A stretch of DNA of 64,000 nucleotides from Sphingobacteriaceae bacterium (GTDB lineage Bacteria; Bacteroidota; Bacteroidia; Sphingobacteriales; Sphingobacteriaceae): NCBI GenBank assembly GCA_947460875.1, contig CANHGR010000003.1:1-64000 (forward strand), read 5' to 3'. Positions 39,490-56,782 of this stretch are shown piece by piece. The position numbers and the translations under genes were made by a program. Under the pieces are notes generated by a model. That model was given only the letters and a program-made list of their open reading frames with translations. It was not told where the DNA came from and ran no database searches. Each line of letters begins with the position of its first letter. The first letter of the stretch is position 1.

Positions 39490-40125
39490 TCAAGCAAAAT
39501 ATTTTCTAAATTCCTTAATAGCGCTTTTCGGATCTTCTGCAACGTTAACGGCAGATGATACTGCAATTCCGTAAACACCCTCTTGGTGAAGGGCAGCTGC
39601 GTCTTCGATCTTTATTCCACCAACAGCAAGGATAGGAACTTTGATATTGGCCTGCTCCATCTCAGTTAAAATTGCTCGGTAGCCTTCGATACCAAGCAAA
39701 GGATAATCATTGATCTTGGTTTTAGTGAAAGAGAAAGGACCACAGCCTATATAATCTGCTGCTCCTTCATGCGCAATTCGCTTGATATCTGTAAATGAAA
39801 TTGCAGAAGCACCAAGAGTTTTTTCTTCAGTTATGATACTCCGTATTTTACCCAAATTAGCATCCATATTTTCCATATGGACGCCTTGAGCGTCAACTTT
39901 GTCTAGCAAATGATAATGGTTGGTTATGATCAAAGTAGCGCCCCAATCATCACAGATCATTGCGATCTGATTAATCTCTGAAATTAAATCCTTATCGCTT
40001 TTAGATAAACATCGGTATTGAATCCAGTTGGCTCCGGCTTCGCAAGCAGTCAAAACCTGCTCGGTGTGACTTCTATTCGGCAAGTCCTGGCTAAGATAGT
40101 GGAATCTGGATATAAATTTTTTCAC
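39490..40125 (-). CDS. thiE: ThiE/TenI-family protein (thiamine phosphate synthase-like)
   Basis: A 211-residue TIM barrel of the ThiE/TenI family. ThiE joins the pyrimidine and thiazole phosphates to form thiamine phosphate, whereas TenI is a thiazole tautomerase. Visible landmarks are WIQYRCLSK (ThiE QLRxK site), GVHMENMD (HLGQxD site), GADYIGCGPFSFTKTK and VPILAVGGI. The usual INDR after strand 2 is TNHY here, so the active site is divergent and TenI-like function is possible. The GTG start shares one base with the phosphatase stop (TAGTG), so it is translationally coupled. It is the third gene of a TPP-riboswitch operon. Confidence 0.82.
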   Translation of the reverse strand: MKKFISRFHYLSQDLPNRSHTEQVLTACEAGANWIQYRCLSKSDKDLISEINQIAMICDDWGATLIITNHYHLLDKVDAQGVHMENMDANLGKIRSIITEEKTLGASAISFTDIKRIAHEGAADYIGCGPFSFTKTKINDYPLLGIEGYRAILTEMEQANIKVPILAVGGIKIEDAAALHQEGVYGIAVSSAVNVAEDPKSAIKEFRKYFA

Positions 40126-41756
40126 TATTTAAGAACTTCTACAATAGGTTTTCCGATACTTCCATTAGGCGCTTGAATGTGCAATAAAGCAGCTATTGTG
40201 GGTGAGATGTCGGTCATATTCGTTAGCTTATTTGTTTTACCATGATTAATCCCCCAACCCATAAATAACAGTGGAATGTGTGTGTCATAAGGGTAGAGAG
40301 AACCATGAGTAGTGCCTGTTTGCTGTCCGCTATACCAACCCGGCTTTAGTATGATTTGAACGACCCCGCTACGCTCTGAATTATAGCCATTGACTATCTT
40401 ACTGCGCAATTCGTCTGGAAGAATAACGTTGTTGATGGCTTTTAAATCAAAAACACCGGCGATACCCGGCTTTCCTTGTAGAAAGTTGACAACGTCTTTG
40501 CGGATACTTTCTTCGTTTAAATTGTTTGTTGCTATAATCCTGTTATTAAGGCTTGCTTGTAAATTACTGAAACTAACTACCAGTCTCGCAGCATTATATT
40601 TTCCTTGAAGCATTGCGTTCAGCTCTTGCAACAGCTGTCCGCTTTGCCAAAGTCCGGCAGGTAGCTTATTGTCTTTCATGAAATTCACATTGTGCGCTGC
40701 ACCGTGATCTGCGGTCAGGAAGACCGTGTAATTACCTTTGCCGGTGGTCTTGTCGAGGAATGTGAAGAAGTCTGCCAACTCGTTATCAAGTCGTAGATAA
40801 GTATCTTCAATCTCGATCGAATTTGGTGCATATTGGTGCCCGATATAGTCTGGCGATGAAAGGCTTACTGCCAGAAAATCCGTAAAACCTGATTTGCCTA
40901 ATCCTTCATTTTCAATTGCCGCCTTTGCCATGTCAAAGGTAAAAGTATTCCCATAAGGTGTGTTTTGAACACTTGCCAGACGTGCGGCAGAAGTTTTTAC
41001 CGGGAAAGTTGGCGTTGTAGCACCACTAAATAACCCCTCATATGGGTTGTTGTCTGGCAAACTTTGCGTGTAAGTTGAAATAGGATATAAAGTGTTCCAT
41101 TCCTGTTTCAAATATTGCTCAACTAACTTTTGATCGTTTAATCTCTTTACCCAGTCCGGAAGTTCGTTCATGTAATAAGTGCTTGTAATCCAGTTACCCG
41201 TTGGATCATCAAACCAATATGCTGCGTTGCCGGTATGTCCTGCCGGAAGGATCGACCCCCTATCTTTTAGCGCAATTCCTATTACTTTGGATCTAAAGTT
41301 AGTTGCTAATCTTAGTTCGTCAGTAATGGTACTTACCCATAAATTTTTGGGCGACATTTCGCCTTCGCGCGAAGTGCTTCCCACAGTCTTTACTGTTGTA
41401 TCCGTTGTACAGTACATCGACTCTCCGGTGGCTTGAATGATAAAATCATTTCCGGCGATTCCATGTATCGATGGAACAGATCCCGTGTACACAGTACTAT
41501 GGCCAATTGCGGTAACTGTTGCAGCATAATCTATATTAGTGTTCTCTGCTGTGAATCCTTCATTTAACATTCTCTTAAAGCCTCCCCCCTGATACCTATC
41601 AAAGTAGCGATACAAAAAATCCCATCGCATCTGATCGACCATGATTCCAACGACAAGTTTAGGACGAGGGACCGTATTATTGGCCTGATTATTTTGTGCG
41701 GAAGCGACCAAAGCAACTAATGTCAGCCCCAACACAGCAACAAGTCTGAATTTCAT
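40125..41756 (-). CDS. PafA-like secreted alkaline phosphatase
   Basis: A 543-residue exported phosphomonoesterase of the PafA branch of the alkaline phosphatase superfamily. A signal peptide (MKFRLVAVLGLTLVALVASAQ) is followed by the metal Asp in GIMVDQMRWD, the nucleophile Thr in YAATVTAIGHSTVYTG, the phosphate-contacting Asn in GIAGND, the K-x-R pair in ALKDRGSILPAGH, metal ligands DYIGH and TADHG, and a final His in TTHGSLYP. All expected catalytic positions are present. PafA enzymes hydrolyse a wide range of phosphomonoesters. Here the gene lies between a TPP-controlled TonB receptor and a ThiE-like gene, which suggests phosphorylated thiamine as a relevant substrate. An upstream in-frame ATG at 41786 is less likely. 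Confidence 0.92.
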   Translation of the reverse strand: MKFRLVAVLGLTLVALVASAQNNQANNTVPRPKLVVGIMVDQMRWDFLYRYFDRYQGGGFKRMLNEGFTAENTNIDYAATVTAIGHSTVYTGSVPSIHGIAGNDFIIQATGESMYCTTDTTVKTVGSTSREGEMSPKNLWVSTITDELRLATNFRSKVIGIALKDRGSILPAGHTGNAAYWFDDPTGNWITSTYYMNELPDWVKRLNDQKLVEQYLKQEWNTLYPISTYTQSLPDNNPYEGLFSGATTPTFPVKTSAARLASVQNTPYGNTFTFDMAKAAIENEGLGKSGFTDFLAVSLSSPDYIGHQYAPNSIEIEDTYLRLDNELADFFTFLDKTTGKGNYTVFLTADHGAAHNVNFMKDNKLPAGLWQSGQLLQELNAMLQGKYNAARLVVSFSNLQASLNNRIIATNNLNEESIRKDVVNFLQGKPGIAGVFDLKAINNVILPDELRSKIVNGYNSERSGVVQIILKPGWYSGQQTGTTHGSLYPYDTHIPLLFMGWGINHGKTNKLTNMTDISPTIAALLHIQAPNGSIGKPIVEVLK

Positions 41757-41857
41757 ATATTTTATTTTTTGCAAATATCTAAACAATTTATAACTGAAAC
41801 GTTATGCTAATATTAAGACATTGTTCTAAAATAGCATTTTTCGGTTGAAGAACTGCC

Positions 41858-44221
41858 CTAAAACTTCAAGCTCATTGACAATAAAAAGTTGCGTGATGCC
41901 TGTGGAAAGTAAAAGTTCTCAGTAGTAACTGTGCCTAAGTAGTTATAACTAAATGTATATCCATTTGTCTCATAAAGCTCGTTGAGTACATTATTTACTA
42001 GTAATGTCATGGCAACATTGTCAATTCTCCCAATAGACGTTTGATAACGCAGTCTAACATCATTTGCAAAAAAGCTATTGATGGTCCGTGCGCTGTTGGA
42101 AGTATTATCAAGATATTGCCTACTTACGTATTTAGTCAAAAACGCCAATTCTACCCGTTTAATGGTCCTAAACGTAAATTCTGAAGACCCAACAAACGAG
42201 GGAGAGAATGCAATGTTAGTATTCTTAAAGTTATTTACGATCTGGCCACCGTTATCGTAATCATCTACAAATTCAGTGAAATTCTCCACTTTATTAGTGC
42301 TCAGTGCTGCGGTTGCATTCCACGCGATATTGTTGGCAAACTGCCATCTGGCATCTAGTTCAACACCAACTCGGTAACTTTCAGGAACATTTTGCCGGAT
42401 ATATTCCCCCACATCGTTGATCTTTCCCGTCAACACAAGCTGATCCTTGTAAAACATTCCGTAACCATTTATTCCTGCACTAAAGGCGTTGCCGTTTAGC
42501 CGATAACCAAGTTCGATGTTGTTCAGCCTTTCTGATTTCGGTTGCTCCACTCCGGCATTTATAAAATCATCTCGATTTGGCTCCTTATTGCCTACAGCAA
42601 AGGAAACATATGCATTCTGATTGGATTTAATGTGGTAACTCAATCCCGCCTTCGGATTAAAAAAGCCTATTTTATCAGTAAAGTCTAATGTATTACGGTT
42701 TTTATCAGTTCCTGTAATGGAATAATTCAGATTTCGATATTGCAAGTCTCCGGAAAGTGTCAAAGCGCCTAGCTGATAATTTGCTTTCGCGAAAACGTTA
42801 AAATCCGTTTTAAATCCATTACCATCATAATAGCGCTGCCTGATTTTACTTGTTGAAGCGAACTCGGCCCATATTACTTCGCCGAAATGATCTCCATCGT
42901 ACTCATTGTAGGCTCCACCAAGTGTAAAATTTAACTCCGACATAGGAAGATAGTTTAATGAATAGGTGAGACCATAAAAATCGTTGTTTAGCCATCTCCG
43001 TCTTATTACATCGCTTTCACTGATGGTTGCTCCACCAAGCACAACCGCGGTAATTCCGTATCCGGATAAGCTAGCATCTTCACGATACTCTTCGTAAAAG
43101 CCGCGTCCATAAGTGTAGTGTAAAGCTGTATTTAGATTCAGCTTTGAAGAGAAAGAATGGGAATACAATAGCTGATAATGATCCTGACTGTAGTTATCGG
43201 TTTGATCATCGTATTCAAAACCGTTAAAGCGACGATTTGTCGATAGCAATGCTTCTGGAACACCATTCCAAGCTTGATAAGTCTCTTCAGTTCCTGAGAA
43301 AACATTAATACGAAGCAGGTCATTTTTACCATAGAAGGCTCCACTTAAAAAGTAAGATTTTAGATTTGAACTTGCTCTATCGATGTATCCATTAGACTTT
43401 ATCCGGGATAAGCGTCCGTCAAAATTCCATTTGTTTTTGATCAAACCGGTTCCAACACTTACCGTATTTTTCCATGTCTCAAAAGAGCCATAGCTATTAT
43501 TTATTTCAGTGTATGTAGAGTCTTTCCTTGTATTAGTCTGCATATTAATACTCGCGCCAAATGCCCCTGCCCCATTGGTTGAAGTGCCTACACCTCGCTG
43601 GATTTGAATATTATCTACAGATGAGGCAAAGTCTGGAATGTTAACTAAAAAAGACCCCTGACTTTCTGAATCATTATATGGAATGCCATTGATGGTTAAA
43701 TTAATTCGGGTAGGATCGCTTCCGCGGATGCGAATTCCAGTATAACCAACACCGGCGCCTGCATCAGAACTTACTACAGCAGAAGGAGTTTGATTTAAAA
43801 GATAGGGTAGATCTTGTCCAAGATTATTCTTTTCAAGCTCCTCTTTTTTAAGATTTCGAAATGTGGTCGCAGAATTATCATCTGCACGCAGGGCACTAAC
43901 TATTACTTCGTCTGTTAAAAAATTACTTCGCTCTAATTCTAGCTCAAGGACAACGTCACTAGCTAGCGAAATCTTCTGCTCTTTTGTAGTAAATCCCACA
44001 TAATTAAACCGGATAGTGTAATCGCCCGGACGTAAATTTCCAATTAAAAAATTGCCCGAATTATTTGTTTGAGTTGCAATAACGCTGTTGGCAAGTTCAA
44101 TCGAAGCCCCTGGCAGTCCCCGCCCTTTATTGTCTGAAATTTTGCCGGAAATAGAAAATTGTGCAAATGCCAAGACAGGCAAAAGCGTTGCCACAAGGGC
44201 AATTAATCGATGTTTTTTCAT
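41858..44221 (-). CDS. TPP-riboswitch-controlled TonB-dependent receptor
   Basis: A 787-residue outer-membrane receptor. Parts in order: signal peptide (LIALVATLLPVLAFAQ); carboxypeptidase-regulatory-like beta domain at about 22-100 (ISGKISDNKGRGLPGASIEL); plug at about 115-225 (DLPYLLNQTPSAVVSS, GIRIRGSDPTRINLTINGIPYND); and a 22-strand-type barrel ending in phenylalanine (LLSMSLKF). A TPP riboswitch ends about 54 bases before its ATG, so thiamine or a phosphorylated or precursor form is the likely ligand. Receptors with this control are known in Bacteroidota and are thought to bring in thiamine compounds. No other uptake genes follow. A phosphatase and a ThiE-like gene do. Confidence 0.92.
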   Translation of the reverse strand: MKKHRLIALVATLLPVLAFAQFSISGKISDNKGRGLPGASIELANSVIATQTNNSGNFLIGNLRPGDYTIRFNYVGFTTKEQKISLASDVVLELELERSNFLTDEVIVSALRADDNSATTFRNLKKEELEKNNLGQDLPYLLNQTPSAVVSSDAGAGVGYTGIRIRGSDPTRINLTINGIPYNDSESQGSFLVNIPDFASSVDNIQIQRGVGTSTNGAGAFGASINMQTNTRKDSTYTEINNSYGSFETWKNTVSVGTGLIKNKWNFDGRLSRIKSNGYIDRASSNLKSYFLSGAFYGKNDLLRINVFSGTEETYQAWNGVPEALLSTNRRFNGFEYDDQTDNYSQDHYQLLYSHSFSSKLNLNTALHYTYGRGFYEEYREDASLSGYGITAVVLGGATISESDVIRRRWLNNDFYGLTYSLNYLPMSELNFTLGGAYNEYDGDHFGEVIWAEFASTSKIRQRYYDGNGFKTDFNVFAKANYQLGALTLSGDLQYRNLNYSITGTDKNRNTLDFTDKIGFFNPKAGLSYHIKSNQNAYVSFAVGNKEPNRDDFINAGVEQPKSERLNNIELGYRLNGNAFSAGINGYGMFYKDQLVLTGKINDVGEYIRQNVPESYRVGVELDARWQFANNIAWNATAALSTNKVENFTEFVDDYDNGGQIVNNFKNTNIAFSPSFVGSSEFTFRTIKRVELAFLTKYVSRQYLDNTSNSARTINSFFANDVRLRYQTSIGRIDNVAMTLLVNNVLNELYETNGYTFSYNYLGTVTTENFYFPQASRNFLLSMSLKF

Positions 44222-44274
44222 GTAACAACTATTTTTTAGTTAAATTATCTGCATCGGGGTACGTGCAGCTTACG

Positions 44275-44491
44275 TTAACTTACCTCCCTACGCCGGCATT
44301 ATCCGGATCAGGTGCTTAGTAAAGTTATAAGTTATTAATTTGTAGGCTATAAGTGGGCAAACGCCCAGACGTATAACTTAAAACGTATAAATAAAACTTC
44401 CTAATGGGTATAATCTCAGCCCGTCTTTGTGTTTGAATTAAGCTGCTTAGGTAGCATGCGGCTTTATTTCACAAACAAGGCACCCCTTAAT
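44275..44491 (-). ncRNA. TPP (THI-box) riboswitch
   Basis: Read on the minus strand: GGGGTGCC at 44486-44479, a P3 helix with TTGTTTGTG pairing to CACAAA, then GGGCTGAGATTATACCC, an extended variable P3a/P4-side region of about 100 nt, and the strongly conserved CACCTGATCCGGATAATGC and CGGCGTAGGGA. Flanking TTAA/TTAA can close P1. The conserved CTGAGA and GATAATGC cores are intact, so TPP binding is expected. A CTGCA/TGCAG hairpin lies between the aptamer and the ATG and may be the expression platform. Confidence 0.95.
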
Positions 44492-44495
44492 GGCA

Positions 44496-44503
44496 CAAAG
44501 ATA
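44496..44503 (-). promoter_or_regulatory. -7 promoter element TATCTTTG of the TPP-riboswitch operon
   Basis: A perfect TAnnTTTG on the minus strand, directly before the riboswitch 5' end. Transcription would start near 44490, at the first nucleotides of the aptamer. Confidence 0.7.
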
Positions 44504-44594
44504 GCGTTATTGAGATTAAGTTTGCAAATCATATTGAAGGAATGCCTTTTCGAAAGGTTGCAGATGTATGCATCTTACATTCCCTCAAAAATCT

Positions 44595-55625: not shown

Positions 55626-56252
55626 ATGATTACTGAAATCTCGTTTTGGCAACAAGTAAATATCCAGTTCATGCAAACAACATGGCTTGAATGGCTAGGT
55701 ACGATAAGCGGATTTTTATGTGTTTATCTAGCGGCAAAGCAGCATATTCTAAATTGGCCGTTAGCCATTATCAGCATAACTTCATACCTGTTTTTATTTT
55801 ATGAATACAAGTTATACGGGGATTCGGCGCTACAAATCTATTTTCTAGCGACGTCGATTTATGGTTGGCGCTTCTGGATTAAAAGAAAGGCTAGCGTTGA
55901 AGTGCCCGTGTCAGCATTAACTAGAAAAGAAACTATAATTGCCGTTCTTTCAATTTTATTTCTATCGGGTCTAACCGGCGTCATACTTGATTTAAAAACC
56001 GATAGCGATGTCCCTTATGCAGACGCCTTTTGCACGTCCGTCAGTCTTGTTGCGCAATTCCTGCTAACGAGAAAAATACTTCAAAACTGGACTTTATGGA
56101 TCATTGTTGATATTTGCTACATCCCATTATACTTGCACAAGGAATTATACCTCACCGCCATGCTCTATGCGTTGTTTCTGATATTGGCAGTTATGGGATT
56201 CGCAGATTGGAAGAAGACTTATTTGAAATCAAAAGCTATACTATTGACATGA
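55626..56252 (+). CDS. pnuC: PnuC-family nicotinamide riboside transporter
   Basis: A 208-residue membrane transporter with about seven hydrophobic segments. PnuC hallmarks are WLGTISGFLCVYLAAKQHILNWPL (quoted as a landmark), SIYGWRFWIKRK, the VPYADAFCTSVSLVAQFLLTRK segment and the aromatic WTLWIIVDICYIPLY. PnuC relatives carry nicotinamide riboside or, in the PnuT branch, thiamine. The next gene is a nucleoside kinase of the NadR type with a 4-base overlap (ATGA), which favours nicotinamide riboside. No riboswitch precedes this gene. Confidence 0.92.
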   Translation: MITEISFWQQVNIQFMQTTWLEWLGTISGFLCVYLAAKQHILNWPLAIISITSYLFLFYEYKLYGDSALQIYFLATSIYGWRFWIKRKASVEVPVSALTRKETIIAVLSILFLSGLTGVILDLKTDSDVPYADAFCTSVSLVAQFLLTRKILQNWTLWIIVDICYIPLYLHKELYLTAMLYALFLILAVMGFADWKKTYLKSKAILLT

Positions 56253-56782
56253 TAGAGGCAGTCAAAAAAATTGCAATCGTAGGACCAGAATCTACAGGAA
56301 AGTCTACTATTTCTGCTTCGCTGGCATCTCATTATCAAACCTTTTGGGTTCCCGAGTATGCACGAGAATATTGCGCAGCACTAAATGCGCCTTGCAGCTG
56401 GCAAGATGAAATTAACATATTTAAGGGTCAATTGGAACTTGAAGATCGTTTGCTTCCTAGTGCTAATAGGCTCCTAATATGCGACACAACCTTTTTAACC
56501 GTCAAAATATGGAGTGATCATATTTTCGGAAAGTCTCCACAAGAAGTGCTAGACGAACTTCCGAAACGACCCTACGACCTGTACCTTCTGATGGATATCG
56601 ATCTTCCATGGCAAGAAGACCCACTGCGTGATTTTCCCGACTTACGTGAGCATTTTATGGAAACGTGGCATAAAGAGCTTCTCTCTTTACACGCAACATA
56701 CGCTGTTATTTCAGGAAGCGACGACCAGCGATTCAGAAATGCAGTCAACTATATTGACGAAATATTGCTCAAAGCTCGCTGA
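56249..56782 (+). CDS. NadR-like ribosylnicotinamide kinase
   Basis: A 177-residue P-loop protein matching the kinase domain of NadR. Walker A is GPESTGKST, followed by VPEYAREYC, the Walker-B-like LLICDTTFLTVKIW and the lid-region segment DIDLPWQEDPLRDFPDLR. It lacks the nucleotidyltransferase and repressor domains of E. coli NadR. It probably phosphorylates imported nicotinamide riboside to trap it as the mononucleotide. The longer in-frame reading from 56114 runs inside pnuC and is rejected. The ATG at 56249 overlaps the pnuC stop. Confidence 0.9.
   Translation: MIEAVKKIAIVGPESTGKSTISASLASHYQTFWVPEYAREYCAALNAPCSWQDEINIFKGQLELEDRLLPSANRLLICDTTFLTVKIWSDHIFGKSPQEVLDELPKRPYDLYLLMDIDLPWQEDPLRDFPDLREHFMETWHKELLSLHATYAVISGSDDQRFRNAVNYIDEILLKAR

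What the first reader, a model, noticed from the sequence alone, without database searches (positions are those of the whole stretch)
39490..44503. Thiamine-controlled operon joining a TonB receptor, a PafA-like phosphatase and a ThiE-like enzyme
The sequence shows a TPP riboswitch with its promoter, a TonB-dependent receptor, then a secreted phosphatase with all PafA catalytic residues, then a ThiE/TenI-family gene that shares one base with the phosphatase stop. TPP-regulated receptors are known in Bacteroidota. I do not recall an alkaline phosphatase placed inside such an operon. The inferred pathway is that thiamine mono- or diphosphate outside the cell, or in the periplasm after receptor import, is dephosphorylated by the PafA-like enzyme so that thiamine can cross the inner membrane, and the ThiE-like protein helps rebuild the cofactor or salvages the thiazole.
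Basis: partly seen in the sequence, partly recalled or inferred. Interest (0 to 1): 0.75.

Follow-up and report, generated by a model that had tools for sequence, protein, structure and literature searches.

The report
Thiamine-controlled receptor operon containing a phosphatase
A family of soil bacteria often keeps its only copy of a secreted alkaline phosphatase behind a vitamin-B1 sensor and a vitamin uptake receptor, which suggests that these cells strip phosphate from scavenged vitamin B1 before taking it in, as yeast does with a different enzyme.

Summary
On the minus strand lie a promoter match, a TPP riboswitch (Rfam 39.1 bits, below the 54.3 gathering score because of an insertion), a TonB receptor, a PafA alkaline phosphatase (778 bits, cut-off 650, catalytic residues intact) and a ThiE-like gene that shares one base with the phosphatase stop. 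It is not a one-off. About 26 of 69 PafA-bearing genomes in the family have PafA in the TPP-receptor operon; Mucilaginibacter often adds PnuT. Outside the family, 0 of 59 PafA loci read have a TPP element nearby. Best reading: a TPP-repressed thiamine-scavenging operon in which periplasmic PafA removes phosphate from thiamine phosphates (role inferred), functionally like yeast PHO3. This genome also has no detectable PnuT and no recognisable TPK; a TPK-derived protein with lost catalytic motifs is conserved instead. How thiamine crosses the inner membrane and is phosphorylated stays open. Operon PafAs are not a separate clade and are usually the only copy, so a specialised thiamine phosphatase is not shown.

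The parts
44496..44528 (-). promoter match TTTG-N21-TATCTTTG (Bacteroidota type)
   Evidence: the TAnnTTTG box is at a similar distance in nearly all homologous receptor loci
44265..44501 (-). TPP riboswitch aptamer, interrupted by about 99 nt between its 5' half (about 44423-44487) and its 3' core (44287-44313)
   Evidence: Rfam RF00059 39.1 bits, E 2.4e-6, below gathering 54.3; invariant core in 16 homologues
41858..44221 (-). TonB-dependent receptor, 787 aa
   Evidence: Pfam PF00593, PF07715, PF13715
40125..41756 (-). PafA-type alkaline phosphatase with N-terminal signal peptide (ATG at 41756; the ORF finder's TTG at 41786 is upstream)
   Evidence: NF042991 778 bits, cut-off 650; 5TJ3/5TOO alignment with active-site residues kept; invariant in 30 homologues
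39490..40125 (-). ThiE/TenI-family protein, GTG start, first base shared with the last base of the PafA stop (TAGTG)
   Evidence: PF02581 131.9 bits; under the ThiE cut-offs; fold ThiE-like Z 26; ThiE pyrophosphate/Mg residues not kept
55626..56252 (+). the genome's only PnuC-family transporter, probably for nicotinamide riboside; not part of the operon
   Evidence: PF04973 194 bits, TIGR01528 over cut-off
56249..56782 (+). NadR-like kinase-domain protein overlapping the PnuC stop; not part of the operon
   Evidence: TIGR01526 kinase part, PF13521

Best explanation
This is a TPP-riboswitch-controlled thiamine-scavenging operon. When cellular TPP is low, one transcript makes a TonB receptor for thiamine compounds, a periplasmic PafA phosphatase and a non-canonical ThiE-fold protein. 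PafA hydrolyses the phosphate groups of thiamine mono- or diphosphate, so that unphosphorylated thiamine can be passed across the inner membrane (by PnuT in relatives, by an unknown carrier in this genome). Shown: parts, order, shared strand, riboswitch core, catalytic residues, conservation. Inferred: thiamine phosphates as the relevant PafA substrate, periplasmic location, co-transcription, direction of regulation. Unknown: the inner-membrane carrier and thiamine kinase of this genome, and the ThiE-like function.
For: About 26 of 69 PafA-bearing genomes of the family have riboswitch-receptor-(PnuT-acyl-CoA-dehydrogenase-like)-PafA on one strand: 24 by coordinates, minus G043, plus G006, G024 and G055 found by sequence. 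There are 60 distinct such loci in all, including many Mucilaginibacter, Daejeonella oryzae, Hufsiella ginkgonis and Arcticibacter. PafA's other recurrent neighbours are PnuT, a ThiE-fold protein and a TPK-derived protein. The last still adjoins PafA in five genomes that have neither receptor nor riboswitch next to PafA. PafA and the ThiE-like gene overlap or nearly touch in many loci. As control, 0 of 59 PafA loci read outside the family carry a TPP element or thiamine gene. PafA is an intact phosphomonoesterase, and F. johnsoniae PafA is needed for growth on sugar phosphates as carbon source, so PafA can serve to free the organic moiety (PMC8812569). Yeast PHO3 gives a precedent for a thiamine-repressed periplasmic TPP phosphatase (PMC4807840).
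Against: No biochemical or expression evidence. Operon PafAs are not a clade (19 label changes on the tree, at least 15 forced by starred branches), and in nearly all these genomes the operon copy is the only PafA (23 of 24), so it may be a general phosphatase. The stretch from AspRS to the M28 peptidase is partly conserved synteny, so some adjacency may be inherited. This genome has no PnuT and no recognisable TPK, leaving the proposed route unfinished.
Confidence: 0.6

Rival explanations
1. PafA is the cell's general phosphomonoesterase that merely sits in the TPP operon by inherited gene order; thiamine control is incidental and its main job is phosphate or carbon release.
For: Operon and non-operon PafAs intermix on the tree; it is usually the only PafA; flanking order (AspRS ... 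TPK-like, GNAT, M28) is also conserved; PafA elsewhere is constitutive and broad (PMC8812569).
Against: The downstream order breaks in this genome right after the ThiE-like gene (TPK-like, GNAT and M28 are at contig C7) while receptor, PafA and ThiE-like stay together; PafA stays with thiamine-type genes in several rearranged genomes; a sole general phosphatase repressed by TPP would be an odd arrangement.
Confidence: 0.25
2. PafA trims TPP only to thiamine monophosphate, which is imported and used by ThiL, because these genomes have ThiL but no recognisable thiamine kinase.
For: ThiL is found in 80 of 81 genomes; canonical TPK in none; the conserved TPK-derived protein has lost its catalytic motifs.
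Against: PafA cleaves phosphomonoesters, so it should go on to thiamine; PnuC/PnuT-type carriers are thought to move unphosphorylated substrates (own knowledge); no TMP carrier was looked for.
Confidence: 0.08

Closest known systems
OMthi-PnuT-Tnr3 thiamine uptake operons of Bacteroides (Costliow and Degnan 2017, PMC5613172)
   Same: TPP riboswitch, TonB receptor, in relatives PnuT and a TPK-derived protein
   Different: adds PafA and a non-canonical ThiE-like protein; the TPK relative has lost its catalytic motifs; no PnuT in the window's genome. Searches of the main text found no phosphatase
Yeast PHO3 thiamine-repressible periplasmic acid phosphatase
   Same: secreted phosphatase shut off by thiamine status, thought to free thiamine for uptake (PMC4807840)
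   Different: unrelated enzyme family, eukaryotic regulation, no TonB receptor
PafA of Flavobacterium johnsoniae and Elizabethkingia meningoseptica (PDB 5TJ3; PMC8812569)
   Same: same enzyme family and active site
   Different: described as constitutive and phosphate-insensitive; thiamine is not mentioned in PMC8812569

Membership tests
TPP riboswitch (RF00059) | conserved THI core in both halves | tested here: met
   GGGGTGC, GGCTGAGA..ACCC and CTGATCCGG-TAATGC-GGCG-AGG largely invariant with 15 homologues
TPP riboswitch (RF00059) | Rfam gathering score (a calling rule, not a structural feature) | tested here: not met
   39.1 against 54.3 bits; homologous receptor elements also fall short, consistent with the 25-123 nt insert
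TPP riboswitch (RF00059) | TPP binding and gene control | not testable with these tools
   needs in-line probing or a reporter
PafA alkaline phosphatase (NF042991) | score over equivalog cut-off | tested here: met
   778 against 650 bits
PafA alkaline phosphatase (NF042991) | catalytic Thr, Asn, Lys, Arg and metal ligands | tested here: met
   alignment to 5TJ3 and its mutant 5TOO; invariant in 30 homologues
PafA alkaline phosphatase (NF042991) | activity on thiamine phosphates | not testable with these tools
   needs purified enzyme
ThiE thiamine phosphate synthase | score over curated ThiE cut-offs | tested here: not met
   126.9 against 145.1 (TIGR00693); 183.7 against 227 (NF000736)
ThiE thiamine phosphate synthase | pyrophosphate and Mg residues K61, N92, D93, D112 | tested here: not met
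   window protein has L, T, N, D at these places; canonical ThiE of relatives keep K, N, D, D
ThiE thiamine phosphate synthase | ThiE fold | tested here: met
   AlphaFold pLDDT 94; Z 26 to ThiE structures, Z 21.7 to TenI
TenI thiazole tautomerase | catalytic residues of TenI | not tested
   only fold similarity seen
Thiamine TonB receptor (OMthi) | TonB receptor domains under TPP control | tested here: met
   Pfam and riboswitch upstream
Thiamine TonB receptor (OMthi) | transport of thiamine or its phosphates | not testable with these tools
   needs uptake assay
OMthi-PnuT-TPK operon | PnuT and TPK present | tested here: not met
   PnuT in many relatives but not in this genome; no canonical TPK in 81 genomes

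The most novel reading that the evidence does not exclude
Sphingobacteriaceae evolved a thiamine-phosphate salvage route in which their PafA is a riboswitch-controlled periplasmic vitamin phosphatase, while canonical TPK was lost and replaced by a TPK-derived pseudo-enzyme, a repurposed ThiE-fold protein and an unidentified thiamine kinase feeding ThiL.
Probability: 0.25. Interest if true: 0.75.

Novelty: new variant of a known kind. Interest (0 to 1): 0.55.

Why it matters
It would give a bacterial counterpart of yeast PHO3 and assign a role to some Bacteroidota PafA enzymes, whose reason for being phosphate-independent is debated. It also points to an unknown thiamine activation step in a whole bacterial family, which is directly testable.

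Tried and rejected
Rfam at gathering score finds no riboswitch in the window or in eight related loci; an E-value search was needed. Free folding of the leader gave no signal (z 0.00). The TPK-like gene had no Pfam, NCBIfam or PDB sequence match and was identified only by fold and by profile comparison with canonical TPKs. The idea that the ThiE-like protein makes thiamine phosphate here was rejected. The idea that the window's PnuC is the thiamine transporter is not excluded, but its NadR-like neighbour favours nicotinamide riboside. Paper searches for a phosphatase in TPP-controlled operons found none, within an open-access library only. Enrichment of the PafA operon in genomes without ThiC (p 0.037) is not corrected for relatedness and used an operon list later adjusted, so it is not relied on.

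Full report
Observation. The minus strand from 44528 to 39490 holds a promoter match, a TPP riboswitch, a TonB receptor, PafA and a ThiE-like gene. Rfam scores the riboswitch 39.1 bits, E 2.4e-6, under its gathering score of 54.3. The two conserved halves are separated by about 99 nt. The same split occurs in relatives, with 25-123 nt, and the core is invariant. The PafA stop and the ThiE-like start share one base (TAGTG). The receptor-PafA gap is 101 bp without a TAnnTTTG motif.

Enzyme. PafA scores 778 bits against a cut-off of 650 and aligns along its length with 5TJ3. The residues mutated in 5TOO are all present and invariant in 30 homologues. The N-terminus MKFRLVAVLGLTLVALVASAQ reads as a signal peptide, so periplasmic export is inferred.

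Conservation. Riboswitch, PafA and ThiE-family coordinates were taken in the same 81 genomes of the family. PafA lies within 6.5 kb downstream of a riboswitch on the same strand in 24 of 69 PafA-bearing genomes. G043 has opposite-strand genes between and is removed; G006, G024 and G055 were found by sequence, giving about 26. Named loci show the order riboswitch-receptor-PnuT-acyl-CoA-dehydrogenase-like-PafA-ThiE-like-TPK-like in many Mucilaginibacter, and the shorter order of the window in Daejeonella oryzae, Arcticibacter and others. On a PafA tree the operon label is scattered, with 19 changes, so operon PafA is not a distinct subfamily and gains cannot be told from losses. Of 60 stretches fetched outside the family, 59 had a PafA ORF recognised by the script, and none had a TPP element or thiamine gene near PafA.

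Other genes. The ThiE-like family keeps the ThiE fold but scores under ThiE cut-offs. It lacks K61 and N92 in most members, with D93 and D112 variable, while canonical ThiE of relatives keep them. The window's genome has no ThiC or ThiD, so it cannot be supplied with HMP-PP by the known route. ThiG, ThiM and ThiK were not searched. ThiL is present. TIGR01378 TPK is found in none of 81 genomes. The unknown 188-aa neighbour of PafA in relatives has a TPK fold (model pLDDT 92; 2OMK Z 15.5 over 173 residues) and aligns by profile with canonical TPKs of other Bacteroidota families (99.9% probability), sharing the N-terminal SSHH-REKQEPAL and LGQLLEWSP stretches but lacking GDFDS, DQ-KTD and R-ADH motifs. 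In the window's genome it lies at C7 with GNAT and M28 genes. The only PnuC-family protein of this genome (55626-56252) is followed by a NadR-like kinase.

Interpretation. The simplest account is thiamine scavenging with dephosphorylation by PafA outside the inner membrane. This rests on operon logic, an intact enzyme, thiamine-type neighbours and precedents in yeast (PMC4807840) and in PafA biology (PMC8812569). It is not proven that thiamine phosphates are the substrate. The pathway after PafA is incomplete in this genome.

Known work. Costliow and Degnan 2017 describe OMthi, PnuT and Tnr3 in gut Bacteroidetes; searches of its main text found no phosphatase. No paper in the open-access library was found that links PafA with thiamine control; subscription literature could not be searched.

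Noticed in passing
L272 1501-2064 (own genome C7:55858-56418); L076 10276-10839: Conserved TPK-derived protein that has lost the GDFDS, DQ-KTD and R-ADH catalytic motifs but keeps an invariant N-terminus; canonical TPK was not found in any of 81 family genomes although ThiL is nearly universal.
   Followed up: partly
L192-L201, and L032, L046, L057: PnuT under a TPP riboswitch is regularly followed by an acyl-CoA-dehydrogenase-like gene of unknown role.
   Followed up: no
L209; window 55626-56782: A PnuC and NadR-like kinase pair lies directly upstream of the TPP-receptor locus in L209; whether it could serve thiamine was not tested.
   Followed up: no
window 44265-44501 and homologous loci: TPP riboswitches of these receptor genes fall below the Rfam gathering score, apparently because of inserts between the two halves, so routine annotation will miss them.
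   Followed up: partly
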